Source: Branchiostoma floridae (lineage: Eukaryota > Chordata > Leptocardii > Amphioxiformes > Branchiostomatidae). Taken from it: a stretch of DNA of 64,000 nucleotides. Positions 163 through 56,523 of this stretch are shown piece by piece. How positions within the stretch are numbered: the stretch's first letter is position 1; each line of letters begins with the position of its first letter. A program made the position numbers and the translations under genes. Where the stretch lies: assembly GCF_000003815.2 (NCBI RefSeq), contig NC_049979.1, positions 10,382,818-10,446,817 on the forward strand, read 5' to 3'. The notes under the pieces were generated by a model that was not told the DNA's origin, searched no databases, and saw nothing but the letters and a program-made list of their open reading frames with translations.

Positions 163-3100
163 GTAGTGTATATTTACCATATTTTGGGGACAGGAGCAAT
201 TTTTAGGTACACAATGACGTGTGATAGCAGTTCATTAAGTGTCCAGACTTGTAAAGCAAGAAAGGTGTAGGTCTGGGCCTTGTGTACAGTCCCGTGACTC
301 ATTTGTTTGGAGAGCCTCCGGATGTAACGTTAACGGTTTTCTACAGCACATACAGTCGTCCATCCACTCATTTTGTCACGTTATGTCCACAACTACCTCC
401 CGTAAATATCGTTGTTGTAACGGCTTGTTTAGGAAGAACGTGTGTAGTGCTACCAAGGGGAATGACACAACACCCTGGCCAACCACAGGAAAGAACATGT
501 CTGACTGATGGAACGATAAAAGATGGCGCAACATGTCCACGACATGGCATGCATGCATCATGGTAGTGCCATACTGCTTGTGTACATAATTTTTTTCATC
601 TGACACTTCCGCCCACGTCGTGTATCTCTGTTGTTGTTATTTGCGAAATACTGTGAAAATTTGTAACGTTGGCCCAACGCGTCAAAGTCCTACCCCACAC
701 TTTAATACAAGGACAGACAAGACTGACATGATGGCACTGTTGGCAGAGTATCAGATTGCTAACAACAGACACTACCCTTGTAGCTCATGGAAGGATTTAA
801 TACTAAAACATGATCCAGTTCAAATATAAATCGCACTGGATTGGATTCTAGATCATAAATGATGTGCAACTTTTACAACCTTTAGATAATCAATGTTTAA
901 TAGGATAATCATGTTGCAATCCTGTGACAAATGCTTCATTATGAAATCAATGTAGGCTTAGTGGTCTCAACATTACAGTGACAGAGATCGCAGGACCTTG
1001 TCAGGAAATATTAGCCTTGCATGTAGACCATACTGGACTGTATATACACTTGCTGCATATGCACACTTGCACAGGAAAACCTTAAATATCTGACGGTATG
1101 GTGTATCAGTTTTTCGGACATGCAAAATATTGTTCTTGTTGCTGAATCACAGAAATTGGCATGATCTACCTTAACTTTAAAATTTTATAGTTACAGTTTT
1201 AACCTCATCTGAAACATTAAATTCAATAAAGACCAACTGGAACTAAACATTTTCATGTCAATTGATACGATAAGTTTCTTTTAAAATTATTTTTGCAATC
1301 CAGGCAAGCCAAAATCAAACGCAGCAAGTGGCTTATAGTACCTGACCAGAGCATGTAGGAGGGCATACGTGTACATGTACCTTAGAAAGCTACAGTTGCT
1401 TTTTACCCAACAAAGATCAAAGTCTAAAGTCTTTTGTGGAATCTTTCATTCTGCGAGTCTGTTGGTTGGTAACCTTTGACCTTTAATACAGGTGGCATGA
1501 TGTGTTGTATTGGATGTTCAGATCATGGATTTTTGTCCTAATTTGTGTGAAAGTGAATTTACTGCAAATAAGCATGTTCCTAGGTTTTAAACAGAATATG
1601 AGGTTTCACACTTCTGAAACCAAAGCAATTACTAGTATGTGATACTGATAGCATCTCACTCTCTTGTATCAATGCTAATATGACTGCTTAAATAGTACTA
1701 GTACATGTTAATGGCAAGCAATTTCCCTCTATGGATATTGTAGCCATACTTCAACGTCAAAGGGCTGTTATACCTGCTATATGGATACTGATTGCATCTA
1801 ATACCAACTTATATTTGCATTTTGATTGCTCAAATTTATCCAAAGTAATAGTTAGAACATAGCTCGAGGCCTTCTATTGGGGAAAAGGGTCGCTCCTCCA
1901 CAAGGGGCGAAGCCTAGGCAGTTATCACAGTGTTGGCTGATGAGTGTTGCAAAAAAAGTGTTGTACTGTGATAAAAGTGTGGCCCTATGTTATTCAAATG
2001 ATTTCATAGTACCACACTTTTTTCATAGTGCCACACTTCTTCAAGTTACTGACTAAGGGGGTATAAAACAGAAATTAAACAAAGGGCTCTGATTGGCTGA
2101 GGGGTAGTGGCCATGTTCTAACTACTTACTGCACAGTGTTCATGATGTGTGCATGTTCATGTTTTTGGTGAATCCAGTGACTATCAGCTAGAGATCTCCT
2201 GGACACCATCCATTGAGCCAACATTCAATAACAGGACTTACATATACATCAGAACTGTTTGATTCTGCTATCTACTCTGTAGGTAAGAAGTGTACCGAGT
2301 GCATGCTGTGGGCATGGTGGCATAGTGGTGCTATTTTCCATGCTTGAAAGAGGCCATAAGTTTTAAAAAAGTTAAGTTTTCTTGCAATAGGAACAGTGCT
2401 TCTGAAGAACCCTATGTGGTCTAACACGCTTGCAACAGCATGCTCACACTTACCTGACAGAAATCTCAGCAGTTGACTTGCAGTGTTTTTATTTGTTGCG
2501 TAAAATATGTATTAATGCCTGTGCATTTGCAAGTTTGTATTTGTCAAAACTGCCCATGAAGACCATGTCACTCGGGACAATTAAAATGGGCACTTTAGAC
2601 AGAATTGTGCATGGGAAAATTTATCTTAAGGTACGACCAAAAAGTAATACACGTTACTACTAGTATTCATAAGTCATATACCTTATGTTCTGTTTTCTCT
2701 ATTTTCCCTATTGCAGAAAACATGTCTGCAGGAGACACCATAGGGCTGAATGGGAGACCCATCCCTGTTGTTCTGGTCAACTCAGACGACCATACCTTTG
2801 AGCTTGACGAAGATGCTCTTAGGTCAGTCCTCCTCAAGGAGCACATCCAGGACAAGAAGGTTGTTGTTGTTTCTGTCGCTGGTGCCTTCCGTAAGGGCAA
2901 GTCTTTTCTCCTCAACTTCTTCCTGCGATACCTGAAAAGCAAGGTAAGAGATACCATCAGAGTGTTGAGCACTATATACCAGTTGTTGTGAGTTGAATAT
3001 TGGTATTGACACAGATTGATAATGTTGTGGCCATGAAACGCCATCTATTCAACAAAATACTCGTTTTTCTTAAAAGAAGAACTTAGACATGTTATGTGTG

Positions 3101-9100: not shown

Positions 9101-10470
9101 TCATTGCTATATGGTTGGTAAATCATAGGAGAGCTGGACCTGCTGTTTCAGGAACATCCTGGATACCCAGATACCATTTTGCCACCTTATCATAGCTTTG
9201 TACAATAGTGGAACTGTCTGTTAGTTGACATTATGGATCAATACATGTATGTGCTACATATATCATTTAGAACAGCCCTATCAAACTACATGTATTTTTT
9301 TCAACAGATCTGTGGAGGAAATCAGCCATACCTGAATCCCGATGAGCTTGAGGCTCACCACCAGCGTTTCAAAGAGAACTGTCTAGAAATCTTTCACGAA
9401 AAGAAGAAGATGGGAGGAGAAGAGTACAGTTCTTGCTTTGCTGAGCAGCTGGACAAGGAAGTAGAGGAAGCCTTCGAGCACTTCTCTGAGCAGAATGATA
9501 GCAAGAACATCTTCCGTGCTGCACAGACGCCGGCCACGTTGTTTGCAGTCATGGTGGTCACATACGTACTATCAGGTATTAGAACTACATTCCTTTCCAC
9601 GTATCAAAGTACTTGCATCTACTTATGTACGTGTTTCAATGACCTGTGTATTAGATGTTGTATTGAAAGGTCCAACCAAACAGCTCTTATCAACAATCTG
9701 TTTTGGACTGAAACTTAGCAAAGTGAAAAGTAAAAAAGCTGTATTGCAATGATTTAGTGTGCTTAAGCTGATTTGTTTGCATTATTTTCATCATCAAAAT
9801 GTCCCCTCCCATTCTGCCTTGCTGTAGGTTTCTTTGCATTGCTTGGAATGTACACCGTAGCCAACATCCTGACAGCGGTATTGTGGGCATCCCTAGTCAG
9901 CCTGTGCACATGGTCGTACATCAGATACAGCGGACAGTACCGTGAGGTTGGCACATACATCGATCTGGGAGCAGAAGTCATCTGGGAGAAAGTATGTGAA
10001 CCTTAATGATTAGTTAATCTTATACTCTATGTCCTTTTTTTCTTTCTTTACTACTGTAACTCTTGAAAGGTTCATGGTGGTGTTATTTTCACTTTTTTCA
10101 CTATAACCCCTTATCCTGAAATCATTCTACTGCGAGTATGTGGTTTGGAATTCTGCTGTACTGCAGAATTGTTTCAACCATGAACTTCAAACTCTGCTAA
10201 AACCTCATTTTCCCTCCTTCTACAAAACAAAACTACAGCCAAAGGAACTGTATTTACAGTACCCTCATGTAGTGTCTACAAATCATTATCAAATGGCCTG
10301 GCTATGCTATATTGTGCTTTAACTTGGATACAACTAAAATATCCTACTATGTAGCTATATTCTAATGTTTGATTTCTGAACCCACACAGGTTGTGAGCCA
10401 GGCTTACATGAAGGTGGTGCAGAAGGGTGTGGAACATAGTATGGCCAATAACAGAAAGAAGAAAAACTGA
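120..10470 (+). CDS. ATL: Atlastin, ER membrane-fusing dynamin-like GTPase
   Basis: Atlastins tether and fuse ER tubules using GTP. Exons read by homology and phase: 120-162 (tentative first), 2717-2943, 4982-5116, 6367-6522, 6942-6998, 7342-7434, 7605-7743, 8182-8309, 8594-8722, 9308-9575, 9828-9991, 10390-10470. The product is about 539 residues, or 523 if it starts at the ATG at 2722; the family is usually 540-580. Numbering from 2722, the P-loop GAFRKGKS is at 54-61, switch-2 DTQG at about 126-129 and the G4-like VRD at about 196-198. The helical middle domain carries QHEELQNVR and [11 protein letters not shown]. Two adjacent hydrophobic segments ([14 protein letters not shown] and the following exon's [13 protein letters not shown]) form the membrane hairpin. 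A cytosolic tail ends in NRKKKN. The acceptor of exon 3 could be 4988 instead of 4982, both in frame. Family identity is certain; the vertebrate paralogue equivalent is not assignable because amphioxus is expected to carry one pre-duplication gene. Confidence 0.93.
163..2716 (+). other. Atlastin intron 1 (2.55 kb)
   Basis: No coding exon is supported here. It contains a MITE-like element (1844-2130) and a strong unused-looking donor (TAG|GTAAGA at 2282) that could end an alternative non-coding first exon. Short open frames between 239 and 830 have no family signature and overlap on both strands. Confidence 0.5.
1844..2130. mobile_element. MITE-like element with GTTAGAACAT inverted ends
   Basis: The left end reads GTAATAGTTAGAACATAG and the reverse complement of the right end reads AGTAAGTAGTTAGAACATGG, so the termini are near-identical inverted repeats about 18 bp long. 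The interior has a second imperfect palindrome built on AAGTGTGG/CCACACTT. The 287-bp length, lack of coding and nested hairpins fit a non-autonomous DNA transposon. No family name is assigned. Confidence 0.5.
5197..6098. mobile_element. Non-autonomous repeat, CCTTCGCC ends and ATGCAAAT units
   Basis: ACCTTCGCC at 5197-5205 is mirrored exactly by GGCGAAGGT at 6090-6098. Between them lie a short TG run (5233-5250), two or three degenerate copies of a roughly 130-bp unit (GGGGCCCCTAGTGGCTTG at about 5345, GGGCCCCCTAGCGGCTTG at about 5477, each near TTTGGTATGT...TAGCTC), then four palindromic units pairing ATTATGCAAAT with ATTTGCATAATTAATGAG (about 5625, 5755, 5880, 6005). No coding capacity is seen. 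It sits in the atlastin intron between exons 5116 and 6367. Confidence 0.6.
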
Positions 10471-12690
10471 GGATGACAATTTGATATAAGGCAACAGATA
10501 CACACATTATCATCATACACACAACACACACACACACGCACATGCACATGCACACACTCACATACACACACATCCATCCATACATTTGCCAAAGTTATTG
10601 ACAACATACCATGGTGTGCATCTGTACCATACTTTTGTCTGAGCAGACAAGAGGACCAGAGACATGATCTAAGTCTTGTCTTGGTCTTAGCCTTAGCTTT
10701 AACTCTTGATTTCCACATGAATAATACCAACAAGCATTCATTACCTTCATACCTGTATATTTCTTTTGCCATACAGAATTCATTGTAATATTTTCATATT
10801 CTGTGACATTATTGTTGGTTATTTGTTCAAAAAATAGTTGGCTTTCAATTATAGTGTACATGTATTCTAAACCATGGATTAGCTAAAGCTTTACTCTGTG
10901 ACATCTATCTATGTTTGTACTAATAATTATAACAGAATTCTTCATAAATCATTGGACATAGTCAAGCAAATGTTCAGTTACTATACATACTGTTGCTTTC
11001 TACCCACTAGTACTGTTGATACATTACATGTTCAGTAATTTAACCCCATTCTGGTTGACAATGGCCTTGGGAGTTGAGTGATTCCTTTCACTTAGACATT
11101 TTCTGAGCAATCTTTACATATTTATGATAGACTATTCGTATCAAATTCTCCCTGCTGAGACTACCTTGCTGTGTCCTTATGTTTATGTCTATGTACTTCT
11201 CAAGCTCAAAAGCTGAAGCTATAATATTCTGTGATGTTATAATGTATGTGATATCCTGACCAAGTTACTTGGAGTGTGCACATGTTTGGGGACTCTGTTC
11301 TAAAATGTTCAAAATTTGTAAAGACGTCATGTCATGGGTGGGAAATTCTAATTACTGACAACATGGATTGCTTAAAGATACAGTTTCTTTTTTGCTGTTG
11401 TTATAACTGTCAATTTTAACATTTAAAACACACACTCTTGTATTTCCAATGGAAAAGAGATGGACAGACATCATTCAAGTGTTACAATAATTGGAATGCA
11501 CAAATAGGTAAAACAAAAGGCTACCACGGTATTTATAAAAAGTGCTGTCTGTTTGTTTGCCACTGTCTTCTGATCTATGCTCTTTTGGTCAAAACTTGAC
11601 AACAACATTAATGTAAGTTTGCTTTTGTGATGTTCATGCACAGTAACTAGATAAATACCATGTCATACAAGTGTCCCAATGTTCACTGTACAGTTACCTC
11701 ATGTGGCTGCTGTAATCTCTTTGATTCAGTCTGACAAAAAGAGAGGAAAAATTAATGCTCAGGGCCAGATAGCTCAGTTTCTATGTAGCATTTGATGTTA
11801 AATTGATGGAGGCATGTGTACAGAGGAGTGATGGTATTGTTTGCAATGCCATTCTATATGAATAATATGTTGCTATGAAAAAAAGAAGAAAATGCATGAT
11901 TTAGGCAAGATGTTTTTGTGACTAGAAGTTAGGACTTGGACATAATTTATATCAGAGCATTGGCTGTATTCGTACATTGCAGCTTGGTCTACAACTTGTC
12001 CTAGGAGGACAGAGAAGGGGATGACCAACCTGACAATAAAGGCCTGTAAGGTCACAACCATCCATTGTTACCACTCACAATGGAAACCCAGTATTATGTA
12101 CACACTCCCCTGTATAATCTGTAATAGGAAATAGAAGTAGACTATAAGGGTCAAGACTGAGGCTTCACATGACAATGCTAGGGCTTCATTCTTCAGACCT
12201 AACCTCACAGCTGCTGGGCCATGTCATCCTGTGCATATGATGTGTGTGAAGTTGTAAGGTCTAACTATAAGACCTATAGTACCATGTCTCCTCATCACCC
12301 ATGGGGTATATTTGTAGCATCCTTGCATCTAGCTTGGTTTGACCAACACACGACCGTGAACATGCTGTGTTTTGATGTAGGAGTTGTGACATCTATGTAA
12401 ATAGTCAGCCATGTTTTGTAATGTCGGATTTCCTACCGTGCAGAAAATGTACAGAGATAACAACACTTGTACAGCTAATTTTGTACATCTCCATCCTAGA
12501 ATTTTGTACTACCATACTGTTCAATCAATATGTAATGGAAATGTTTATGAATGATGCAAAGTGATGTATTGTTCTTGTTGAAGTGACAGTATGCACAGGA
12601 TGTTTGTCTTCGGCTCCTCAGTTCCTCAGATTTGCCTTGTTACCTTCATCAGTAGGATATGAAATAAATATGATGCATTTGAAATAACAG
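10471..12690 (+). other. ATL: Atlastin 3' UTR with poly(A) signal at 12663
   Basis: No open frame with a recognisable family follows the stop at 10470. The first clear AATAAA in a suitable place is 12663-12668, giving a 3' UTR of about 2.2 kb. A CA/CACATG simple repeat starts 45 bases after the stop. The exact end is inferred; a shorter form is possible. Confidence 0.5.
10516..10572. repeat. CA-rich microsatellite in atlastin 3' UTR
   Basis: An interrupted (CA)n tract with CACATG interruptions. Confidence 0.85.
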
Positions 12691-13650
12691 TGTTTTTTAA
12701 CAGTGTTTTTTTTTTCCTCATGTATGGCATTCGTTGCAGTTCCCCTTAAATTCGTTTGCAAACTTGTTGATTTTAAGTAGTCATCTACTTACTAGTACAG
12801 CATTCGAAAGAAAAGCTGGAAAACCAGGGATAACTAATACTTTCTAGCCACTCCCCCTCGAAAAGGGTTGGACTTGCGGTCTAGTGCAACTCCTTTAGGA
12901 TGATTTAAATCTACCGGTACTGTGACTGCCAGTTTTCTGTACAGTCAGTTGGTACCTCATTGCGTTGACCGTTATCCTCAGTGGTAAATACGGACAGATG
13001 ACGTGAACACCTGAAGGAGTGGGATACAGGTAACGGCAGGATATATACTACACAAAGTCGCAGACGTCAACCTCAGTCATTCTCTCCAGTTTGCAAGATC
13101 TGCCACATGGATGGATCAACCTCATCAAAATCTGGACAATCTATGTGAACAGCTGGAAAATCATAGAAGTTGTTGTCATTGCGAGGGTTGGGGCGGTACA
13201 AGTCATGTGTACCAAAATACGTACAAATAAAGTCTCTGTCGCATTTTACTCTGACTCTAATTCATGTGCAGCTTCCACTGACTATTTTCCATTGAAAGTC
13301 GGTCGGAAGATAAAGTATAGATGCTGTGCAGACCTGGAGTCGGACACGGTCTGACCGTCATACATGTCGGAAATAAATGCCCCGTCATACATGCTTGGTG
13401 TAACACAATGCGCTGTGTGTTCTGCAAGGTGGCTTGGTCTTAATACATGGAAGTGTCTGGAAACAACAATCCCTTAATTCAGTTCAAACAAAAGCATTGC
13501 TTCAGCATTGTTCGAACGCAGATGAAAATGCGTGTCATTATGTATAAAGAGACATGTCAGCCTTGCAGGATACTCGACCCCCGTCGATCCTGGAAATGAA
13601 AACAGGCGACCTCTACTACTCGCCGAAAATATATACGGAATGCCTCGAGT
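12691..13650. other. Intergenic region between atlastin and RLC
   Basis: No family-level coding signal. A TATATA at 13039-13044 is followed by an 87-codon open frame from 13091 and an AATAAA at 13370-13375, which could mark a small orphan transcript, but codon use is not persuasive. Confidence 0.4.
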
Positions 13651-13706
13651 ATGCAAATTAGCAATATCATCTGTGCTTACTTTTCATGGCAATGTGCCAT
13701 ATAAGG
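13651..13706 (+). promoter_or_regulatory. RLC promoter: octamer and CArG/TATA box
   Basis: ATGCAAAT at 13651-13658 is a perfect POU octamer. CCATATAAGG at 13697-13706 is a perfect CArG box (CC, six A/T, GG), the binding site of serum response factor used by striated and smooth muscle genes. The same bases contain TATAAG, so it may serve as the TATA box. If so, transcription would start near 13730, leaving a 5' UTR of about 140 bases before the ATG at 13868. Site function is inferred. Confidence 0.55.
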
Positions 13707-13867
13707 AAAGTGTCAGACCAAGAATTCTCTGATAGGTCCGTTATTCCGGTCTTCAGAACTGATATAGCCCGACCAACCGACTTTGGAGGTCAGCAGTTTC
13801 TGCGCTCACCAGTGCGTCGGCTAGTCGTTGGGGTCCCTGTGTCTAAAAGGAACGAACTGAACCAAAG

Positions 13868-16800
13868 ATGGTAAGTAGTGCTCTGTCCATATTAGAGGCT
13901 TTTTCTCAGCTTTTGGAATTGATAAAACAGCTTCCTTTCGGTTTTGTTTGGCGACTGTGACAAGTTTTCGTTATGCGATTGGACGACTAGACAATGCAGT
14001 TGATCAAACTTTGAAAACGGAGTTCTTCGAAATGTAATGAGCTCTTAAGAGTTGTGGCATGCAGTAAGTTACAGACGCCTTATAGCTATGAACATCGATT
14101 AGCGTTTTTAAATAACTTTCGATTTCATATCATTGTATTGCAAAGGAGAGCAATGTTTACAAATGATGGAAAGTAGACTTAATGGGCCTTGCACTTATAC
14201 AAGACTTGACTTATCGTCATATGTTACGAATATAAGTGACAATTGAGAAAAAGGGCAAGCGCAATACTTTTCCTTCGTCTCCCAACTATGATACACACCA
14301 GCAGTCAAACAGGGGTATTTCGTTTTTCCAGTCAGGCTGAAATAGTTTAAATACCGACATGGTGTAGTACAGGATAGTATATGTACGCGCATACCTTAGG
14401 ATACTTGAAACTGCATTTACGTATTGAAAGTGATACCCCGTTGATACCCGATTCGCACTATTTCATAATTCCCCAAGCACATCGTAATATACGCAATGAT
14501 TCAAATGTGGCTATATAAAAAAAGGAACACGGAAAAATTCTGTGCTTTATACAGTCGTACGTGAGGTTAGGACGGTACTATTTTGGGGCAGGGGATCGAT
14601 TACAAAAAACACAGACAATGCAATTCTACTTTTCGCTTAATGCTTTGCCATTTCCGACTGAGCCATTACACTGCTCAAAGTCTGATTCTGAAACGAAGAA
14701 AAAGCAACGTATAATAGATGCATTGCTACACAAAGTATACGATACAGCCAGCCTTTCTTGGCACAGAACACGATTACGTTTAATACTGGCTCCATCTTGG
14801 ATGAAAGTTTCATTTTGGCGGGAACACATTCCAGGAATACTCGCGAGGGGACAGCAAATTCTGCGCCCGGCTAGTGTGGCTACTGTTGAACTGTTTACAG
14901 ATGACCTAAGACAAAACTATTAATGTCATGTTTTTTGATACGCAAAGCAAGATGATGACAGTTAATGGTTCTATGAGTAGCGATGGTTGCGTGTTCTGGT
15001 AATATCAAAATATTAAATATTAAACAGTAAAAAAAATGGAATGTGGAAACTTTGAAGACTTCAAATTTAGATTTCAGGGGAAAAAGGAAAAATATTGTAC
15101 GTGCGATCGACAGAAATAGGACTTAACGTTTTTGTATATGTTTAGCTTACGCGTTGTGTACGTTGTGTCACCTTGTTGTGTTGAAACCCTGTGCGCTAGG
15201 CGTCCAGAAAGGCCAAGAAGAAGGCAGGATCCCTACGCGCTAAGCGCGTCACTTCCAACGTCTTCGCGATGTTCGACACCGCGCAGATTCAAGAATTCAA
15301 AGAGGTAATTATCCACTTCGATGAGAGTGAGAGTAACCCGAGTCCTGTTGTATTGCTCTCTCCTAACAGGCAAGCAGAAAGGCCAAGAAGAAGGCTGGGT
15401 CCATGCGCGCCAAGCGCGTGACATCCAACGTCTTCGCCATGTTCACCTCCGAGCAGATCCAGGAGTTCAAAGAGGCAAGCCATGTAGCATGGCCGACTTA
15501 GCAAAACCCACTCTTGTACAAACTGGGCGGGTTTTGCTACTTCGGTCTGCTTCCTAAGTTAGAAGACCAGAGACGTTTGTGATCCTACTGTCATGGGCTA
15601 TGGTTTGGATCACAGACGCCCTGGCCAACCAACGAACCCACGAGAATTGCCTGTAGTAGCTTGTACTCCGCATTCTAACCCATACTGCTCTTTCACAAAT
15701 CTATCATCACCATTTTCATTTCAGAAGGTCCAACAGAGTGCCCACGGATCCATAACTTCATTCTATGCTTAACATCTTCCTTTTTTTTCACCCGCCGACA
15801 ACTGACAATACCATAGAACTGCCCTGTGTTGTGCTATGACCCTTTATGCAACTGAAACGTACGAATGACTAGTGGTGGAATCGGGCTTACTGTAACACCG
15901 CTAACGTACAAGATACGACAAGTGATGTCGGTTTTCGAAAAAAAAAGACAACCGAATTATTAACTGTTCAAACAACTTCTATTCATATCTGTGCTGTATA
16001 ATTCTGAAACCCTGCCAAAAGGTCAACCTTCAACAGAACTACAGGCCATTAAAACACTATGAAAAATGAATTGTGAGGAAGAGTGACTAACGACAAACTT
16101 ACATTTCCTGTTCCATGACAAACAAGTCAACTGACATTTTAGAATGCACGACCGACCCACAGCACGTACATGTATTTCCATAGACCACCATGGCATCAAC
16201 TCGGCCTGTACCTGAAAATGGGACTCTCTCGTCGTCGTCGTATATGGACCAATACACAAAGATTACACCACCCACCATCCACGACACATGTTTAATTTAA
16301 ACATCCCAGATCCTCTACTAACCGGGACATCAGCTGATAACTCTAGATCTCTAACCTAACCGTTACGTTAAGATTACATACCTGATCACTAAAGCGTCGC
16401 CCCTCTGTCCCTGTCCCACAGGCTTTCACGTGGATCGACCAGAACCACGACGGCTTCCTGCAGCCTGACGATCTGAAGGGTGTCTTCTCAGAGCTGAGTA
16501 AGTCGGGTCTCCTCAAAACCTGTGTTAAACTGTGTATAGTTGCTATGAGGTCTGATGATACATGCATCTATAGTCGTACCAGATGATATGTCATTGTCGA
16601 AGCATCGCGGGGATTTAATTTCGCGGTGGCGGGAAAATGAAGTGTTCGCGGTTCAGCGCCATGTACTGTACTGTAGTCACATACTGCAATATAAAATGTT
16701 CGCGGTGGTTTTGAGTTCGCGGTGAAACAGCCATCGCAAAAAAAACGCGAACATAAAATCACCGCGAACATTTCTGCATCTACAGCACAAATGGCAGGTT

Positions 16801-17869
16801 TAAGATAGTTAACCATCCATTGCTGCCTTTCTCCAGACAAGGATCCCGGCAGTGATGGCATCGACAAGATGATGGCCGACGCACCTGGTCCCATCAACTT
16901 CACCTGCTTCTTGACAATCATGGGCAGGAAACTCAAGGGTAAGTTGTGCACCTGATGTTGTAAAGGTAAGAGCGACAGAACGCCAACAGATTATGAACGT
17001 AAGATCGTGACGTTGTGTTGTGTTGTGGTGGACCGAGGGCCATTATAAACAGAACAGCGGCATTTTGTCAACATCTCCTAGGCTCACCATACAAACATTT
17101 GTCTTTCTTACAGGCGTGGACACAGAAGAGGTCATGTTAGACGCCTTCAAGATCTTGGATCCCGATGAGACTGGGAAAGTAGCAGTATCGACGTAAGTTG
17201 TCCTGAACATTTTCGTGTCCATTCTTTTAGCAATAGATTTCCTGGGCTTGGTTTACATGACAAACGCAATCATCACACGATAGAAGACGTCCCAATCACA
17301 TTAATGTAAACGCTCTGTAGTGAAGTGTATTTCCAGAGATATTTCACTAGACGTAGACCAAACGTTTGGAATCGTCCAACCAAAATAATAATCGATACTT
17401 TTTCTCTCTTCCTACAGGATCAAAGAGCTGCTGGTCAGTGGCGGCGAGAAGTTCTCAGATGACGAGGTACTTTCTATATTATCTCATGGCATCAGCTTTG
17501 CAAGCATACAGATAAAGGAGAATTTCCGTAAACCTTTAGATGTGTTCTTTAGATGTTACTTCAGAGTCAGGATTGTATGCCAGTTTTGATTGCATCTAGT
17601 TCCTGATATCCAGATCCCGTGGTTATGATTATATTCTACGACAATTATTATTATTATCTCGTTATTATGGTTAACTTCATCCATTACAATATCATTTATT
17701 GCCATCATCCCGTTATTATGATTAAATCCCGAGACAACAACACATATGTTAATTCATATTTTGACTTCTCTTTCCTCAGCTGAAGGGTGCATTTGAGGGT
17801 GCACCAGTCGAGGACGGAAACTTGGACTACATCAAGTACTGCAAGATCGTGAAGCGCGGCGAGGACTAG
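13868..17869 (+). CDS. Myosin regulatory light chain (muscle/smooth type)
   Basis: The regulatory light chain binds the myosin lever arm and controls motor activity by Mg/Ca binding and N-terminal phosphorylation. Exons: the ATG alone at 13868-13870, then 15200-15304 or 15370-15474 (alternatives), 16422-16497, 16837-16938, 17114-17192, 17418-17466, 17780-17869. All phases agree and the product is 167 residues, normal for the family. The N-terminus is basic (KAKKKAGS). KRVTSNVFAMF keeps the Thr-Ser pair phosphorylated by light-chain kinase (residues 19-20). EF-hand 1 loop DQNHDGFLQPDD has the metal ligands. MADAPGPINFTCFLT and the LKGVDTEE helix are family hallmarks, and the protein ends YCKIVKRGED. 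The smooth/non-muscle style phosphosite and the muscle-like KKAGS lead make the exact class uncertain. A poly(A) signal ATTAAA lies at 18143. Confidence 0.93.
15200..15304 (+). CDS. RLC alternative exon A (N-terminal segment)
   Basis: This 105-nt phase-0 exon encodes 35 residues from ASRKAKKKAG to IQEFKE. It holds the Thr-Ser phosphosite. Its acceptor is GTGCGCTAG with a thin pyrimidine tract, and its donor is GAG|GTAATT. It differs from exon B by L/M at exon position 12 and by D-T-A against T-S-E at positions 26-28, immediately before the first EF-hand helix. Confidence 0.85.
15370..15474 (+). CDS. RLC alternative exon B, with GC donor
   Basis: This tandem copy of exon A has identical length and phase. 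Fifteen codons differ, of which 11 are synonymous and 4 change the residue, so both copies have been held under protein-level selection. Its acceptor (CTCTCTCCTAACAG) is stronger than that of exon A. Its 3' boundary reads GAG|GCAAGC, a GC-type 5' splice site; the next exon (16422) continues AFTWIDQN in frame. The nearest GT downstream (CAT|GTAGCA) would add four residues not found in the family. Confidence 0.82.
16595..16795. mobile_element. TTCGCGGT palindromic MITE in RLC intron
   Basis: The motif TTCGCGGT and its complement ACCGCGAA recur in both orientations (near 16618, 16648, 16699, 16716, and inverted near 16745-16768), able to fold into a hairpin. The copy ends around TTTCTGCATCTACAG. 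From general knowledge this short palindromic repeat type is abundant in amphioxus and other marine invertebrate genomes. No coding. Confidence 0.6.
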
Positions 17870-18142
17870 ACCAGCTCCATCCCCCACCCACACGCTTCGG
17901 TCGTATAGGGATCACGTCATCGTCTTTGAACTATGTCAGAAACGTACTTTGTGAGCACATTTGAGCTATTTATGGCGACATCCTCACCACCACAGTTGTC
18001 ATTCTCACGTTGCCTGCTATTTTTGGCTCGCACATGTATGAAACATAGTCGGGCTTCTGACATACTTTGAACCGACTCAAGTTACCATTCTTCTGTACCA
18101 ACAAATGTATTTACTTATCTCCAAATCAATTTTCGTTATGAA

Positions 18143-18148
18143 ATTAAA
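18143..18148 (+). terminator. Poly(A) signal of RLC gene
   Basis: ATTAAA, the commonest variant hexamer, lies 274 bases after the stop codon at 17869. It is the first plausible signal in this 3' UTR. Confidence 0.55.
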
Positions 18149-18674
18149 TGTGTACTTCTAAGCGCCTGTTGGTCATTTGGACTTCACTGGTCGTATTGTA
18201 ACAAAAAGTGTAAGTGTACTACCGTCTTTGGAAAAACGTAGGCGAAGTAAACGAAGTAGATGTAGCATGTACATGTGAACAGTTAAGAGGGGTGACATTT
18301 GAAGAAATAACCAGAGGGGTTGCGAAGGACAGAGGAGCATAAGGATTCTCTTGCACAGGGAGATCCCCACTTGCATTTTTGTACAGTTCGTATTTTGGTT
18401 TGTGTCAATGGTTTGTCCAGCCTTTTTACTCCCAGTAAAGTTAAATGGCTGCTCTTACCTACTTCTACTTTCTCTGTGAATTTGTTGTCAGCGTCGTTAC
18501 TAAACATTACTTAACGCCACCACCAGTTCTTGAATTGACTTACAATCTCAAATGGATGGACTTGCGGTCAGCGGTAACTATGGACCAACGCGATTCCACG
18601 ATGCCAGTAATGCGTCTCCATAAGAAATGTGTTAAACGTTTATGAGAGAGACGTATAAAAGGAAGGAATGAGAA

Positions 18675-18680
<6 letters not shown>

Positions 18681-18760
<80 letters not shown>

Positions 18761-18776
18761 GAGAGAGAGAGAGTTA
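18681..18776. repeat. (GA)n microsatellite
   Basis: A GA dinucleotide tract of about 95 bp with a single GAAA interruption near its right end. Confidence 0.95.
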
Positions 18777-20189
18777 CCCAAGCCATGGCCCCAATCACCA
18801 CGTGACGCACAATGTCCTTGGTGCTGAAGCGCCATCTCGGGTGCCTGTGGACTGTTCCAATCCGTCACACACATACCGCTACTGTGGAGTTGTCAATAGA
18901 TCGTTGCTACACGAAACGCCTAATGATATAATAGCTATATGCTGCAAAGAACTGTTCAGCACCAGGACCCCTCCCTCATCACACAAACATTACTTGAGTC
19001 AAAGATATCACGCAACCTCGATCCCGATCTGCACACAGTGGTTGGTATAAAATAATTTGTTTGAGTAAAGAAATGTGTATCATGCAGTACCACCAGTAAT
19101 ACTTATCCACCGGGTCACATAATTTCGCTACTTAAAAAATGTGTTTAGGAGATCTCTGAGTACAGAATCCCCTAAGTATACACCGCTCAAAAATGCTTAT
19201 TTACTTCTTACTTGATAAGGTCTCCTCATCTCTCTGAGTGGCCTGCATCAAGGAGTCTGTACCTTTTTTGTACCGTACTTTGCCATTCCGGGCGGCTCTG
19301 GGCCACATCTCAAGGCTTTGAAATACAGGAGTGCATTATACTGGGGGATGTTGCACTGGAGATCTCTTTAGATGCATTGTTTTGAGGTAGTAGATATGTG
19401 TGACTGGCGGGATTATGTTAACAACTTAAGATGTTATACCATGTGTCCAACAAATAGAAACATGGAATGATATAACCCATATACATACATAGTCTCCAAC
19501 AGGCCTTCCTAAAGGGTTGATGTTGATAATGACAAATATATGGTGGCCAGGAAAGTGCGCCTGCAGTAAAAGTAGCATTTCTCCCTGAACTGTTCGGGCA
19601 AAGAAAACCTTGTGGTGTGGTGGTCAAAGTCTCCCGCCAAATCATTCTCCTTGGTAGTTGGTCTGGTGGAGACTAGTACGCACACATCATATAAAGTAGT
19701 CTACATCTCCTTTCCCGATGAGATGTGGCTGGTTCTCAACGTTAACACTGATGGAATATCACGAAAATACCTCTTGCACCATCTATCTTTGCTGTCTAAT
19801 AAAAAGGGCGTAAATTGTGATTTCTCATGATGAAAGATGAAAGGTATAGGTGAAAAAATATCAGGCATCTTAGCAAAAGGAAGAGAAAAGACATGTTGCA
19901 TGTACGTACCATCGTCATTGTTGGAAAAATGATTATCTTTTATATTAAAATTTTACATATTCCATGTATTGTGTTATTGGGTGCCCTCGTACTACATGTA
20001 TTAGGAAAGTTTTGTTATCTTATTTGACGACAATACATGTGCAAGGATACTAGTACTTCCCCGGTAGGATAACCCGTTATCTTAAGTTAATGTTTCAGCA
20101 AAACGGTTCTCCGTATTGTGCAATTGTTACAGTACATGCGTCTCTAAATACATTGTATAAAAGAGTCCCGATACGAGTATTGCATTGCC

Positions 20190-20222
20190 GTGTATGTATG
20201 TATGTATGTATGTATGTATGTA
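20190..20222. repeat. (TATG)n tetranucleotide repeat
   Basis: About eight uninterrupted units of TATG/TGTA. Confidence 0.9.
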
Positions 20223-21311
20223 TTGCCGTGATCGGCTGAGAAACCAATACAGGTGCACTCAATGTAAGCTGTCGCCACTTCGGTCCGTCCCTTGTCACTC
20301 ACTTTATGTGTAATTGTCTAACTTAGGGCCGTGGGAGATCAAAACAGTCTGCTATGGAATGTGATGGTCTAGCAAAATATACTGCAGCTTCCATTGTGCA
20401 ACGGCTGCACTTCATATTCGACCCTCATGGTGGCGTTTATAATCAGGATAAGGCTCGGATTTAACTATAGTAATAAAGGAATGAACAGTTTTGAACGGTG
20501 GTATGCACTTTTGATGACCGTTTTTTGTACTGGGTCGCAAGAGACAAAAAGAAACGGCCCGCAAAAATGTATTATGAGCCCCGCAAAGAAAACACGAAGA
20601 AAGGCGCAGAAAGTCTGCTATGGAGGCTAACAAATCTGTCCACACTGCCCATGATCTTTAGCCATAGCAAAACACAATAGTAGCGTTGTGTATCACTCGG
20701 TCCAAGATGAAATCTAATGATTGTCCTTTGTCCAGCAAAGCAACTCTACCTGGCTCACACACGTGTGACCCCAGCGCGCCATGGAGCTGGTCACGCCCAC
20801 TTTACCTGAGCACTTTCCCTTTTCTGTCCGCCGGACTTGCAGCACCAGTGATGGCTGACAGGACAAATAATAATTAAGGACACTGCCATTCGGACAATGT
20901 TTTTAGATGAGATACACAAAACTTCGCCCCTGTGTGTGATTTAAATCAACATTAAATGTTGACTGTAAGCCTATTCTTGTGACAGAATCAGTTTGGTCAA
21001 ACATTTGAATATGCCCATCTTGTTTGGATATGGGCAATTGAGTTCGCATCATGACCCAGTTATTTCTCTGTCAGCAAGTACCGAGACGTCGATATTTTGA
21101 AAGTCCCGCCTGCCAGTCGACAGTTGGTAAAGATATCGACCTACATGTACTTAATATGAACACACGCGTTCGATATGAAGTGTAAGTACATAGAGTACTC
21201 TGGATTGAGTTAATGGTTGATGGTAGGTCCCCACTTTCTCACCTGCCCATGACCTGAAGTACACCCATGGGCTCACCCGCCGACCGGCATGCTTTGCAAG
21301 CAGCTGGCAAG

Positions 21312-21324
21312 ATGGAGGGATTCG
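21312..21324 (+). CDS. EML: Likely 13-nt first coding exon of EML
   Basis: AAGATGGAGG gives a good start context. The exon encodes MEGF plus one base, then a strong donor GTAAGT. Joined in phase 1 to 31283 it yields MEGFDDSLSQDS, matching the known vertebrate EML start pattern (M-D/E-G-F ... D-D-S-I/L-S). The 9.96-kb intron that follows is long, so a missed nearer start cannot be excluded. Confidence 0.65.
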
Positions 21325-24300
21325 GTAAGTGGCTGTCAAACATCTCCTCTGGTTTTCTCCTTTTTTGTCGGCCCTGTCTGTGCTCTGTGTCGTTTGATAT
21401 GATAGGTTAGCTCAGATAAGGTTTGTTGTACTGTGGATATCGTTTGTTTTGTCTGGAGGGTCTGGGTTTGGTCATAGGGGTGCGGGGACGTTGGGTGACG
21501 AGCGGTAGTGTACAAACGTCAAATCTATTTCCCCAAACACAGACCGGTACAGATCGGTACAGCACGGCACGGGGAGATGTTCAGACGACACGAAACACTG
21601 CAGATGGTGGTTACACAGCAGTCGTTTGTGTATTAGCTGCACAGCTGCTACTACTAGTCAGTACAGAGCTCCCGTGAACGCCAAGGGCTTTTTATTCTGG
21701 CGCGATTTCTTATCCTGGAACATGCCAGGGACTTTCTGCCTGTGCATGACGGTGTCCTGGGATGGTTGGTTTTGATTTCCGCGGATCCCCGATGGTGGGC
21801 TGGGACTGTTTGTCCAGTTCTGGCAGCTGGGGGCAGTTAGTGTCTAAAAGCCGTGAAGAGATCACCAAAAATGGCAGTAGAACAGAGAAGCCCCTCCCTC
21901 GCGTTTTCTCTCGTGGAGTTGGCATCACAAATTGCAGTCTGAAAGGGGGAAAGAGGATCGGGTTAGAAACAACATATTACATCTGTTGTATCAACTCACT
22001 AGAGTAACGCAATGCCAGCCCCATTGAGTAGATCACTGCTCAATGTTGTGGCATAAATAGCACCTTATTAGACATTAGGAGGTAATTTATGTTATTGTAG
22101 CAAACACCATTACCAACATAATGAATTTGCTGATGTTGAATAATGATATGATTATGTATCAAACAGATCTTATGATCGGAAATGATTCACAAGTTCAGTG
22201 GTATCAGAACAATATTGCTTTGCTGAGAAAAGCGTGTTTTCACACTTCAGGGCAGTTGCTCCTTTATTGTGCTATTTTATACAATGCCTAATTGCAGTTG
22301 TCATAAATAATGTGTGACAAGATGTAAATGGCAGAGGGGCAATCAGCCCAATCCTTGGTGATCCACATGAACAATAAATCTCCATCAAACTCAAGGACAA
22401 CAGGGCGCTGGTGGTTTTATGTTTCTCTATGCAAGACCACAGAGCCTTTGAAGTTCTGGCTGATTGGCTTTTGTTCAGGAGATGACTGTTGTACTGTTAC
22501 AAGATGGACCTTGCATACAACCTTGTTACATGACTGCAAACAAATCTGACAAAGTGTGTTTGCTGTCAGCTGCTGCTGGGACCTACTAGTACAATGTTCT
22601 TATTCAGCACTGACATGGGCATGTATTATACAACAAGTAAACTCCATCCGCTACACAATATGGGCTTTAGCACTTTTGTTCTGAAACGCTGAAGAGGCGA
22701 GTAGAAACAGTACCCTGGCTTCTGTGATTCGAACCTGGGCCCGCCAGCTCACAAAACCAACATCGCAAAAGGTCTGTATCCATAGGCCTGGTCAGTTGGT
22801 GGCACATGAGCCTCACTGTTACAGTTCTTATCAGCCAGGGACATTTCTTTTCCTTACAAGACATGTATAATCCTGGCTGGTGCACGTGATTGAGACAAGG
22901 ACTGGAAAATGCAAACTTATGAATGTAGAAATGGTTCAGGTTGACACAGTTTCACCCAGAACATGCATGTAAATATGAATGATCCATTCAGTCTGAGACA
23001 GTGCTTTCACCTGAGTGAAAAGTAGTTCTTGGCTGACAGCTAATTGACTATGGAGAGGAATGCTGCCACGCCCCCTTTGCAAACACTGCATTTCAGTCAA
23101 GTCTAGATCCTGACAAGCTTGTGTGTAACAGAGCATAGCAAAGAAGTGTTTCACTGAAAAGGTAACTCAATACATTGCTTGAAATAAATTGTGACTGGCA
23201 CGCCTTGGTATTCCTGTGTTTGTGTGAAAACTGTCCCACAACAAAGTGGCAAGAGACAATGCAAACATCGTCAAGTGGCAAAACTAACACATTATCACCA
23301 AATTGACTGGCTAGGGAAAGTGAATTAGTAAATAAAGTCTTTAGCTTAGGTAGACCTATAGCAAGTAGCAAGAATAAATAAACCAAAAGGCCATATTGCC
23401 AAAGTGGAAAAATTACTTCCTTGATACTTCCTTTCCCTTTCATCATCTCCTTTCCTTCCTAGTTGAAGATTCTCCTTCTTTCCTGTGCAGTGTTTTTAAC
23501 AGACAATTTTCTGTGAAATTGTGGCTACTTTGTCAACTTTCATTATTCATTCCAATATAACACAATGGCAAGTAATGGTGAATCAGGCATTCATGAAGAG
23601 GAAGCACATCTGTTACAATGGGAGGGGATATGGGAGGCAATCCAAAGGAAGTTATTCATATTTGTGGCTATGGTCTTTAAGTGTTTCCTACATATACACA
23701 GGGGGCTCACTGTTCCTCTCACCTTGGACCTTGGAGGAATGCCAGGTCCAGACAAGTTAATCCTCTTGGGTATATCACCTGTGAACCTGAAAAATTGCTG
23801 TAACATTACCCTTGCTTCAGGCATTACTGACATCCATTAGGCCTGTGTTAAACATTGTAATGTTACGAAAGCACAGAGAGAGGCACTATCTAAAGTGTGC
23901 AGATAATATGAACATCCACAGTATACCTGACTTGAGCCTGCATTGTTGTACTAAGTTCTTTATGGTATACTGCCATGACAGAAGTACAGTTCCCAGGGGA
24001 GGTATATTCCATGATTCAGTGATTGGATATGTCAATAATTAATCCTTTCCCTGATTGTATTTTATGTCAGTTGACCTAGCATCCCTTTGTGGCAATGGCA
24101 GGGAGGCTTCAAAGGCTGCAGTGGAGACTTGAATTAATGATATGATAAGGATGTTGGAAGTACTATCATGTTCTTTTATATATAATAGTGAAATAATGTG
24201 ACCTTTGTACATCCCTAGTAAAATTACAGGCATGCTGAATGGGCTGAATTTGTCTGGCTATTTTGAACACCTACATGTATTGAGGATTATGGAATTTATT

Positions 24301-50300: not shown

Positions 50301-53300
50301 CAAAAATCTTGGAGGTTTGTATATGTCCCTCCAACAAGCTATACCTGAAAGTTTCAGATCTATTATAGTATTGTGTTTTATAGATATGGACAGACTGCAT
50401 TATTGTTGTCCCTCCCTAATTACCGGCTTGTACCAGTCTGTCTGGTGCTAACTACATGGAGGTCCATTGCAGTACCAACTCTATATGCTAGGTGGCAGTC
50501 ATCCCTTGAAGGATGGTCATTCAGGAAACTTGACTTGAGATCAATTTAGCAAATTTTCGCTAAATCATGTTGTGGCTTTTCTGTACTATCTAATGCGGAC
50601 TAATAGTCCTTTACAGTTCACTAAGAGTGATTAACAATACAATATTTTCTGCGGCTATAAAGGACCCTGCCCAGTCAGCGGAGTTTCATCCCAATGGGAC
50701 AGTTGTGGCCATCGGACTGCAGTCTGGCCGCTGGCTGGTGCTGGACACGTCCAGCAAAGACCTGGTGACGGTGCACACCGACGGGAACGAGCAGCATGAC
50801 TGTGTACGCTACTCGCCTGGTAGGGATTCATCATCTGTATTACCTAGCAAGGCTGCCACCTGGTGCAGCAAAAAAATTGAATGTTATTGCATTCTTGCAA
50901 TGAAGATCTGAATTATACTGCATTTTTCATCAGCATAACATGAAGGATTGTGGAAATAATTTTAGATAAACAATGAATGATGTTTTTCACGTGAGTATCC
51001 TGTACATTTACATTTGTATACTGTTAGTTGAGATTATATATCTTCATACCTCGCTGCACACAGATGGGAACTTCCTGGCTGTCGGGTCTCACGACAATAT
51101 CATCTACCTGTACTCTGTGACTGAGGAGGGCAGAAAGTACAGCAGGGTTGGCAAACTCACCGTGAGTAAAGTCCTATGTGTTCCGCATGGGTTGAACATG
51201 GTGATCCTCAGAGGTGCTGAAGAGAAGAACACTGCTATCTGTTTGTCACAAATTTTATATCTATTGTATACCTTGTGGTGCTCATCATTAATACCTTATG
51301 GCATTACAAATTTGTAATTTAGATAAGGACAAACAATAGTATAATGAAGAAAAAAACTGTTAAACAATGATAACAAACAATACAAAAACTGAAGAAATCA
51401 TGACTCTATTGATATATAGAATAGGAAATTGGATTTTAGGTTAGTTTTCTGTATCAAAATAAAGAGTATTCACATTTTATCCTGAAGGAAGTCAAAGTCA
51501 ATGTTCTTTCCCGCGCCTGATGGCGCATAGTGCGGCGCCCATCTCTATTTCAGTAGCCCTGGGCCACACAACTTCGTACAATCACTACAGCAGGGGGTTA
51601 GTCCACTGGTAGCGGCGTGTGTTCAACTTCCATACTCTTTCCCGAATGCTGAGTGCTAAGCAGAGAAAGCAGCATGTACCATTTTTAAAGCCTTTGGTAT
51701 GACTCGGCCGGGGATTAAACTCACGACCTTCCGAATGTAAGGCGAACAATCTACCCACTCGGCCATTGCACTGAAGGAAGGCTTAACCTAAAACACAGCA
51801 GATTCCCTAAAAATTACACCACCATCATTAAAGTAAGCTTGACCTGATATGATGTTCCATTGCCTTACACAGGGACACTCCAGCTTTGTAACCCATCTAG
51901 ACTGGTCCAGCGACAGCCAGTACATCAGGAGCAACTCAGGGGACTACGAGATTTTGTATTGTAAGAAAATACTTTTATTCTTCAGTTTGTAATTTTTTTA
52001 ATGAAGATTGTCAATTCCTTGCTTTAACATAAAAATCTTGACCAATCCCATTTTGATGTTACTTTTTTAGCCCAGATGTATTTTTTAGCCCTAAATTGTA
52101 TATCAAGGAGAAGTGGCTTATTCCGAACCATTCACTGCACAGTGTTGGTCAATTAGGCTTTTTAGCCCTAGAGGGCATTGAAATCTACAGGTCAGTTTAA
52201 GTACCAGTTTAAGACAGGTCATCAAGGTCTCTATACCATAAAAAGTGCACACCTTCACAATGTGTGAACCATATTGTTTGCCATGTAGGGAGCGCTGCCA
52301 TGTGTCGCCAGGTACCTGCTGCAGCCTCTCTACGAGATGTGGAGTGGGCCACAGCCACGTGTACTCTCAACTTCCAGGTCTTTGGTGAGGGCTCATTCAC
52401 TCATTCTCTCTGCTCTATTTCTGTACACAAAGTAAGTGCTTACCAATCAAGTTGAAATGTCCTGAAACCGATATATAAGTCACATGACCTGAACGTAGCT
52501 GTGACAACAGCAATGTTGTTGAACTTGTCATGTCAATACGAATCAAATTTGACCTGTCAGTTCAAATCACAGAATTGACTGACAAGTCATTGAAATGTTT
52601 GCAGCAGAATAAAATAGGGCTGCATGTGTACCAAAGCAGATTATGTTCAAATGTTGAATGTTGTTTTCCCCAGGCATGTGGCCCGAGGGTTCAGATGGCA
52701 CCGACATCAACGGCTCTGCCTGCTCCAAGTCTGGCAAGCTGCTGGCCAACGCTGACGACTTTGGGAAGGTCAATCTGTTTAAGTACCCCTGCTGCCAGCC
52801 ACGGGTGAGTCTGCTAGAAGGAGCATTTAACACATTCAGCAAACAAACAAACTCATTATAAAACTGCTCATAATAACCTTATTTGTACCATTCAAAATTG
52901 TATAGCAAGTCACAATTTAGACTCTCAAAAATTAGAATAGAAGTGTTTACCAAAATGTAACATTAGTTACAGGTACTGTTACAGAGGTCTTGAACAATTG
53001 AACAGACAACTTGTGGACTTCAATGACGACAAAACATAAATGTTTATTTAGACCTCAGTTATCTTATGTAGAGAGTCCTGCTTTTTAGAGGATCTCAAAT
53101 TTTGAAAAATGGTGCTGATTTCAATGACCATAGTACAATGTTTTCACTTTTTTCCATATTTGCTGTAGGAATACTAGTAAGACATTCTAGTAGCAAAATA
53201 AGTTATTATAAGTGATTATACAAGTCTATTTGGGTTCAGAATAATGAATAAATGTCCCCAGCACGGAACTTTTTAATTGCATAGGTTTGATGTACGTTTC

Positions 53301-55640: not shown

Positions 55641-56523
55641 AAAAAAAAAAACCAATCTTTATTGACACGACAAAAGTACAGCGACTTTCGTAAGGTCTAC
55701 ATGTATAACAACTACTTACAGTACAACTAAACACACATATATGGATATCTATAGGTATGATTAAATCAACATATAGGGTCTAGCATGTCATTAACACTAT
55801 TAGTTCTACGGTATAAACATTCGTGGATATATTTGCCTACTTGTACACAGTGAGGGTTATCGCCTCCCAGAATGTATTTGAATTTATCTATCGAACAGAG
55901 AGTAGCAAATTCTTTAGAACAAGCGGAAAGTAATGTGAACAGCTCTGTGCGTTTATCATTATATCGAGAACAATCCATAACAAAGTGACGTTCGTCTTCG
56001 ATCTCATTTGGGCAAAATGGACAAAACCTCTGGTCACGGGGAATTTTAGTATATCTTCCGGCTTCTATATTTAGTTTGTGACTACTGATTCTCATCTTTG
56101 TAATTGCTCTACGAAGTTCGAAACTGTGTACATTCGAAAGATACTTCTTTTGTCCGTATCTTTCCTTTAGCGTAGAATAAATGCAAAGTTTTGGGTTATT
56201 CTGGATAGAAGAATGCCATTCTTGTATGTATATATCCTGTAAACGGAGTCGTAATTGGTCGGTTAGCATATTAACATGATACAACCTCGGGTTTGTCCAT
56301 ACATACCCAAAACCATTATAGTTGAGAATGTCAGTTACGTGATTTGTCCAGTCGTATTCGCCGGAAAGTAAAACATCATATGCTTCATGTAGTAAAGAAT
56401 CTTCGGGTAAGTTTGCTAGACGGTGCCAGTATTTGATTAATTGTATCTCAGCATTGATCGAAATGGGAAAGGTTCCTAACTCACCACGGATGCCGTCATT
56501 TGATGATTTCGAAGTTTGGGTTG
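55641..56523 (-). mobile_element. 5'-truncated LINE with 10-bp TSD
   Basis: TGCAATTAAC flanks the element exactly (55631-55640 and 56524-56533). The minus strand is open from the 5' edge (QTSKSSNDGIRGELGTFP) to a stop at 55766, about 250 residues. It encodes the C-terminal part of a non-LTR reverse transcriptase with the terminal zinc motif CPFC-x8-HFVMDC (CX2CX8HX4C). About 115 bases of 3' UTR follow, with AATAAA and then a run of 11 T on the coding strand at the insertion junction. The catalytic domain and endonuclease are missing by 5' truncation, so it cannot move by itself. The intact frame suggests a young insertion. The exact clade is not assigned. Confidence 0.85.

What the first reader, a model, noticed from the sequence alone, without database searches (positions are those of the whole stretch)
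15200..15474. Tandemly duplicated, probably mutually exclusive N-terminal exons in a myosin regulatory light chain
Two adjacent 105-nt exons share phase, length and 31 of 35 residues, with 11 synonymous and only 4 amino-acid-changing codons. This is the signature of a duplicated exon kept under selection. The 65-nt intron between them leaves little room for a branch point, favouring mutual exclusion although joint inclusion would stay in frame. The variable residues (D-T-A or T-S-E) sit just after the Thr-Ser phosphosite, so the choice could tune light-chain kinase response or lever-arm contacts by muscle type. I know of no such exon pair in vertebrate RLC genes.
Basis: partly seen in the sequence, partly recalled or inferred. 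Interest (0 to 1): 0.82.

Follow-up and report, generated by a model that had tools for sequence, protein, structure and literature searches.

The report
Twin alternative exons, amphioxus myosin light-chain
An amphioxus muscle gene for the myosin regulatory light chain carries two near-identical copies of the exon that encodes its phosphorylation tail, most likely used one at a time, and two sister genes carry duplicated exons at other positions.

Summary
Two adjacent 105-nt, phase-0 exons (A 15200-15304, B 15370-15474) encode the N-terminal phosphorylation region of a myosin regulatory light chain (RLC). They share 31/35 residues, with 11 synonymous and 4 replacement codons. Either exon gives an intact 167-aa RLC. 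I add four points.
(1) Exon B has a GC donor (GAG|GCAAGC), the only one seen in these genes; exon A has the poorest pyrimidine tract of its own gene.
(2) The 65-nt A-B intron has no consensus branch site at a usable place. The best candidate lies 32 nt from the donor of A, inside the ~50-nt steric limit cited for known exclusive pairs. Frame does not exclude joint use, so short-intron steric exclusion is the likely enforcer.
(3) Residue 27 is D or E in six other RLC genes and D in A; B (T-S-E) is derived there.
(4) Of at least seven RLC genes found in this genome, three carry a duplicated exon, each in a different module.
No transcript or congener data were available, so exclusive use is inferred. 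I rate it a credible new member of a known kind, moderately interesting.

The parts
13868..13870 (+). Exon 1 coding part: ATG only, donor GTAAGT
   Evidence: Gene model, (placed by eye); the same ATG|GTAAGT arrangement in the modelled paralogues L018 and L020
15150..15199 (+). Acceptor region of exon A: 11/20 pyrimidines, the fewest of exons A, B and 3-7 of this gene; nearest YTNAY branch motif 50 nt from the intron end
15200..15304 (+). Exon A (2a): residues 2-36, residues 27-29 D-T-A; donor GTAATT (U1 pairing -6.7 kcal/mol)
15305..15369 (+). 65-nt intron between the copies; shortest of 22 exon spacings in the four modelled RLC genes (next 140)
15332..15337 (+). Candidate branch site (A at 15336): intron position 32, 33 nt from the intron end; at the edge of a weak predicted hairpin with the pyrimidine tract (z -1.69)
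   Evidence: inferred
15370..15474 (+). Exon B (2b): residues 2-36, residues 27-29 T-S-E
15475..15480 (+). GC donor of exon B (AG|GCAAGC); positions -2, -1, +1 and +3 to +5 pair with U1
16422..16497 (+). Exon 3, EF-hand 1; common acceptor for A and B
16837..16938 (+). Exon 4
17114..17192 (+). Exon 5
17418..17466 (+). Exon 6
17780..17869 (+). Exon 7 with stop codon

Best explanation
Exon 2 of an amphioxus RLC gene was tandemly duplicated. Both copies have been kept as alternative versions of the phosphorylation-tail exon, and one of the two is spliced between exon 1 and exon 3 in each transcript. Likely working (inferred): the branch site that serves exon B sits about 32 nt from the donor of A, too close for A to be joined to B, so the spliceosome pairs exon 1 with either A or B. 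Exon B has the better acceptor but a GC donor; exon A has a GT donor but a poorer acceptor. The outcome is therefore balanced and could be tipped by splicing factors that differ between tissues. The protein differs mainly at residues 27-29, at the start of the first EF-hand helix just after the Thr19-Ser20 site, and so would alter the hinge that couples the phosphorylated tail to the N-lobe. Shown: the exons, splice signals, open frames and sequence constraint. Inferred: exclusive use, tissue choice and hinge effect.
For: Same length and phase, 87/105 nt, 11 synonymous against 4 replacement codons; dS 0.72, dN 0.10. If one copy had been neutral throughout, about 30 replacement changes would be expected at the point estimate of dS, against about 7.5 seen (P 7e-7; P 0.06 at the lower 95% bound of dS). 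No stop or indel. GC3 is A 25/35, B 30/35, exons 3-7 98/132. Both copies have AG acceptors and pairing donors. The GC donor keeps consensus elsewhere, the compensated pattern described for GC donors (PMC2490688, passages). The only YTNAY in the intron is 3 nt from its end; the best other candidate is 32 nt from the donor. Precedents: OGDH exons 4a/4b, whose mapped branch points lie below a proposed ~50-nt limit, and Tpm1 at 41 nt (PMC7969005, passages); let-2 intron 10, where a GC donor is needed for regulated choice (passages). Two sister genes also hold duplicated exons, one pair (3a/3b) out of frame if joined.
Against: No RNA evidence and no second species. A+B and skipping both stay in frame. 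Counting changes by lineage against three paralogues, exon A is clearly constrained (2 replacement of 10 polarised changes, P 1e-4) but exon B is not (3 of 6, P 0.12) (split by hand, synonymous sites saturated). The signals are less unusual than they first look: acceptors of L019 exons 4 and 5a have 10/20 and 11/20 pyrimidines, like exon A, and by U1 pairing the GC donor (-4.9) is only slightly weaker than the GT donors of exons 3, 5 and 6 of the same gene (-5.6 to -5.7). The branch site is a motif guess. PMC7969005 itself calls the precise role of the donor-branch distance unclear and quotes only ~9% of human exclusive pairs as limited by it. In human genes GC donors were linked chiefly to alternative 5' sites (PMC7242645). 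The hairpin is not significant (14 of 200 shuffles).
Confidence: 0.68

Rival explanations
1. Exon B is the normal exon and exon A a rarely used minor exon, because A has a poor pyrimidine tract.
For: A acceptor 11/20 pyrimidines against 14/20 for B and 13-17/20 for exons 3-7; GC3 of A is lower, 25/35 against 30/35.
Against: Exon A shows the stronger constraint and keeps the acidic residue 27 seen in 6 of 6 other RLC genes; acceptors as poor are found in L019.
Confidence: 0.12
2. Exon B is a dying copy: its donor changed from GT to GC and only A is used.
For: U1 pairing of the GC donor is -4.9 kcal/mol against -9.6 for a GT version; 5 of 5 comparable paralogue exon-2 donors are GT; constraint on B alone is not proven.
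Against: Frame intact, GC3 30/35, better acceptor, other donor positions at consensus; too few replacement changes in all for a long-neutral copy, though a recent loss is not excluded.
Confidence: 0.09
3. Both exons are included together, giving a 202-aa light chain with two phosphorylation tails.
For: A+B stays in frame.
Against: 65-nt intron whose branch candidates all lie within 32 nt of the donor of A or 3 nt from the acceptor; a second tail before EF-hand 1 would be disruptive (inference).
Confidence: 0.04
4. The choice is made by promoter, with another first exon feeding B.
For: Not excluded; I did not look for a second first exon.
Against: Both copies start in the same phase and can use the ATG exon at 13868-13870.
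Confidence: 0.04
5. Assembly artefact or allelic copies laid in tandem.
For: Amphioxus is highly polymorphic (recalled).
Against: The copies differ at 18 of 105 bases, have different splice sites and no similar flanks; each occurs once among the matches.
Confidence: 0.03

Closest known systems
OGDH exons 4a/4b (vertebrates), mutually exclusive by distant branch points
   Same: Tandem exon pair, short middle intron, branch sites inside a proposed ~50-nt limit from the first donor (PMC7969005, passages and section 29)
   Different: There the branch points were mapped in minigenes and joint inclusion breaks the frame; here the branch site is predicted and the frame stays open
alpha-Tropomyosin (Tpm1) mutually exclusive exons
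   Same: Muscle gene; donor-branch distance 41 nt as quoted in PMC7969005
   Different: Distant branch site is proven in the cited work; tropomyosin is a thin-filament protein (recalled)
C. elegans let-2, GC donor of intron 10
   Same: GC donor needed for developmentally regulated exon choice (PMC7242645 and PMC2490688, passages citing Farrer 2002)
   Different: Collagen IV gene; that exons 9 and 10 are the exclusive pair is recalled, not read in a call
Insect muscle myosin heavy chain (Mhc) exon clusters
   Same: Muscle myosin subunit diversified by mutually exclusive exons (PMC11944230, passages)
   Different: Heavy chain, five clusters of alternative exons in Drosophila, with transgenic functional evidence
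Vertebrate RLC genes (MYL2, MYLPF, MYL9, MYL12)
   Same: Same protein family; ATG-only first coding exon in muscle genes (recalled)
   Different: Single exon 2 (recalled); no alternative phosphorylation-tail exon in the listings of searches

Membership tests
Tandemly duplicated mutually exclusive exon pair | Adjacent exons of equal length and phase with homologous sequence | tested here: met
Tandemly duplicated mutually exclusive exon pair | Each exon alone gives an intact protein with compatible splice sites | tested here: met
   167-aa ORF with either exon; B has a GC donor
Tandemly duplicated mutually exclusive exon pair | Joint inclusion is prevented by frame | tested here: not met
   A+B stays in frame, 202 aa; this is one possible enforcing mechanism among several (PMC7969005 section 29), not a requirement
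Tandemly duplicated mutually exclusive exon pair | Joint inclusion is prevented by short donor-branch distance | tested here: inconclusive
   Motif candidates at intron positions 7, 20, 26 and 32, and one 3 nt from the end; none mapped
Tandemly duplicated mutually exclusive exon pair | Transcripts hold one exon or the other, never both | not testable with these tools
   No RNA data
Tandemly duplicated mutually exclusive exon pair | Both copies conserved in related species | not testable with these tools
   No other cephalochordate genome offered; the genome has no relatives here
Myosin regulatory light chain | Full-length homology to RLCs, closer than to calmodulin | tested here: met
   MYL9 chain E 9e-48, best calmodulin E 6.3e-22; EF-hand Pfam models
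Myosin regulatory light chain | Thr-Ser phosphosite with basic residues at -3 and -6 | tested here: met
   R14 and R17 before T19-S20 in both exons; kinase preference recalled
GC-AG intron | GC at +1/+2 with otherwise consensus donor | tested here: met
   AG|GCAAGC; use in RNA not tested

The most novel reading that the evidence does not exclude
Amphioxus RLC genes have acquired exon-level switches in three separate modules: the phosphorylation-tail hinge (this gene), the EF-hand 1 metal site (C4 gene, exons 3a/3b) and the C-lobe (non-muscle-like gene, alternative last exons). Together they would let a lineage without the vertebrate whole-genome duplications produce a combinatorial set of regulatory light chains for myotome, contractile notochord and other tissues.
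Probability: 0.35. Interest if true: 0.62.

Novelty: new member of a known kind. Interest (0 to 1): 0.47.

Why it matters
Phosphorylation of the RLC tail is a main switch of myosin II. A splice-level choice of the tail-hinge sequence would be a regulatory layer that no title or abstract in my searches described. The small difference (three adjacent residues plus L13M) makes a clean natural experiment on how the phosphorylated tail is coupled to the EF-hand lobe, and the short intron with a GC donor is a compact test of two proposed rules for exclusive splicing.

Tried and rejected
Frame-enforced exclusion: rejected for A/B because A+B is in frame, though it would hold for exons 3a/3b of the C4 paralogue. 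A GT 9 nt downstream as the real donor of B: rejected, U1 pairing -1.1 against -4.9 kcal/mol, and it would add three residues. RNA structure as selector: a hairpin pairing the candidate branch region with the pyrimidine tract is weak (z -1.69 for the intron; z -1.33 for 15290-15490). CArG box at 13697 as proof of a muscle promoter: the window count equals chance (5 against 5.4 expected). A third copy of exon 2: no good match outside A and B in a tblastn scan of window 10001-22000 (best unassigned exon-2 hit E 0.12). Excess of exon duplication in RLC genes: 3 of 7 against a published ~10% of animal genes gives P 0.026, but 2 of 6 without the window gene gives 0.11. Papers: searches listed none whose title or abstract start describes this exon pair; I saw all listed rows, but one search listed 20 of 34 and 20 of 235 papers, and only the licence-limited library was searched. 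PMC12613645 (salmon) looked relevant but its passages were a general list of splicing events, abbreviations and references.

Full report
WHAT IS THERE. The window holds a complete myosin regulatory light chain gene on the + strand: an ATG-only first coding exon (placed by eye), two copies of the next exon, and five further exons ending at 17869. With either copy the product is a 167-residue RLC. The nearest solved chains are MYL9 and MYL12B (A: E 9e-48 and 1.3e-47; B: 6.7e-47 and 9.4e-47). The window lies in a 513-Mb genome of 431 contigs, which I recall as the size of the Branchiostoma floridae assembly; the tool names no species.

THE PAIR. Exon A (15200-15304) and exon B (15370-15474) are both 105 nt and phase 0, and share 87/105 bases and 31/35 residues. 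Fifteen codons differ: eleven synonymously (one is a TCC/AGC serine switch) and four by replacement, L13M, D27T, T28S and A29E. Three of the four are consecutive (P 0.02 for four random positions). Flanking sequence is not alike. dS is 0.72 and dN 0.10. Had one copy been neutral since the duplication, about 30 replacement changes would be expected; about 7.5 are seen (P 7e-7, or 0.06 at the lower 95% bound of dS). A cruder simulation that fixes the number of changes is weaker: with 9 of the 18 changes falling neutrally on one copy, 4 or fewer residue changes without a stop come up in 4-6% of runs. Comparing the 18 differences with three paralogues (replacement and synonymous sites split by hand) puts 10 changes on A (2, in one replacement codon) and 6 on B (3, in two replacement codons), with 2 undecided. 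Constraint is therefore firm for A (P 1e-4) and only suggestive for B (P 0.12). Synonymous sites of the paralogues are saturated, so this is a weak test.

WHICH IS DERIVED. Residues 27-29 are D-Q-S (L018), D-Q-A (L019), E-Q-S (L020), D-K-G (L022), E-Q-S and D-S-S (two genes at L031/L032) and D-T-A in A. So residue 27 is acidic in 6 of 6 other genes and in A, and T only in B. B scores slightly lower than A against MYL9 (162.9 against 165.8 bits) and higher against calmodulin 9ya0 (86.1 against 81.8), because F-T-S-E-Q-I resembles the start of the first calmodulin helix. At many synonymous sites it is B that keeps the paralogue base. The net charge of the triplet is the same in A and B, and the phosphosites and upstream basic residues are unchanged. 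In smooth muscle RLC the N-terminal extension is disordered when unphosphorylated and helical when phosphorylated (PMC10868710, passages). A change at the junction of that extension and the first EF-hand helix is thus a natural point of action. That is inference, not a result.

SPLICE SIGNALS. Exons 1 and 3-6 have GT donors. Exon A has GTAATT (U1 pairing -6.7 kcal/mol) and 11/20 pyrimidines before its AG, the fewest in this gene, though L019 exons 4 and 5a have 10 and 11. Exon B has 14/20 but a GC donor, GAG|GCAAGC (-4.9; -9.6 if it were GT); by the same measure the GT donors of exons 3, 5 and 6 reach only -5.6 to -5.7. The five comparable paralogue exon-2 donors are GT. GC donors occur in a small fraction of introns, tend to match consensus elsewhere, and are enriched in alternatively spliced genes; in let-2 of C. 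elegans the GC donor is essential for regulated choice (PMC2490688, PMC7242645, passages). In human genes the enrichment was for alternative 5' sites.

WHY EXCLUSIVE. The A-B intron is 65 nt; among 22 exon spacings in the four modelled RLC genes the next shortest is 140. The only YTNAY motif is 3 nt from the intron end, which I judge too close to use. The looser candidates have their A at intron positions 7, 20, 26 and 32. The last (GTAAC, A at 15336) lies 33 nt from the intron end, a normal distance, but 32 nt from the donor of A. In OGDH the mapped branch points of the exclusive pair lie below a proposed ~50-nt limit, and Tpm1 has 41 nt, although that paper calls the exact role of the distance unclear and quotes ~9% of human exclusive pairs as limited by it (PMC7969005, passages and section 29). 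The frame does not help: A+B gives 202 aa and skipping gives 132 aa, both open. So I expect steric exclusion, with the A/B ratio set by the balance of a poorer acceptor (A) and a GC donor (B). A predicted hairpin over the candidate branch region is not significant.

SISTER GENES. Genome searches and fetched neighbourhoods show at least seven RLC genes: this one; two in tandem on C4 (L018, L022); a non-muscle-like gene on C2 at 2.02 Mb (L019); one on C2 at 21.2 Mb (L020); and two on C2 near 11.08-11.09 Mb (L031, L032). Three have a duplicated exon. The L018 gene has two 76-nt versions of exon 3 (EF-hand 1; 9/25 residues identical; joint use shifts the frame). The L019 gene has two terminal exons with their own stops (35 of 56 residues identical without gaps). 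In the other four genes each exon that the tblastn scans found was found once; L022, L031 and L032 were not modelled fully, and L020 has an N gap between exons 4 and 5. About 10% of animal genes were reported to hold tandemly duplicated exons (PMC9013439 citing a 2002 study, passage), so 3 of 7 is a mild excess (P 0.026; P 0.11 for 2 of 6 without the window gene).

WHAT IS KNOWN. Searches for amphioxus or Branchiostoma with RLC, light chain, exclusive exons or tandem exon duplication listed no paper whose title or abstract start describes such a pair; one search showed 20 of 235. I read passages only of PMC12613645, PMC11944230, PMC7242645, PMC8805411, PMC9013439, PMC2490688 and PMC10868710, and passages plus one section of PMC7969005; the rest were seen as listings. 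Subscription papers are not held, and database gene models were not available, so an automatic annotation with both isoforms may exist.

VERDICT. It is a new member of a known kind (tandem, probably mutually exclusive exons), in a gene family where I know of none, with the recurrent duplication in sister genes as the more interesting lead.

Noticed in passing
L018 (C4:14048000-14057900, minus strand), exons at L018 3761-3686 (3a) and 3170-3095 (3b): A sister RLC gene has two 76-nt versions of the EF-hand 1 exon, 9/25 residues alike, both with AG acceptor and GTGAGT donor; including both shifts the frame, so they must be exclusive if both are used. They would switch the metal-binding loop.
   Followed up: partly
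L019 (C2:2015500-2025400, minus strand), exons at L019 2341-2157 (5a) and 856-684 (5b): The non-muscle-like RLC gene has two alternative last exons with separate stop codons, C-termini KHGQKDREERTDQA and KHGAKDKDEQ.
   Followed up: partly
L022 1159-3386, L031 394-7000, L032 7497-9530: Three further RLC genes, one in tandem upstream of the L018 gene and two neighbours on C2 near 11.08-11.09 Mb; no duplicated exon seen in tblastn scans.
   Followed up: partly
window 13697-13706 and L020 3001-3010: Perfect CArG-type motifs upstream of the ATG of two RLC genes; the number in the window and in L020 equals chance, and L018 has none.
   Followed up: partly
window 2599-2991, 50594-51317, 60760-61101 (-): Exons of neighbouring genes: a GBP-type GTPase (atlastin by eye), an EML-type beta-propeller (E 1e-10, below Pfam's cut-off, a partial exon) and a Cu/Zn superoxide dismutase domain.
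   Followed up: no
window 55766-56539 (-): 257-aa open frame that looks by eye like part of a retroelement protein; no Pfam match at E 0.01.
   Followed up: no
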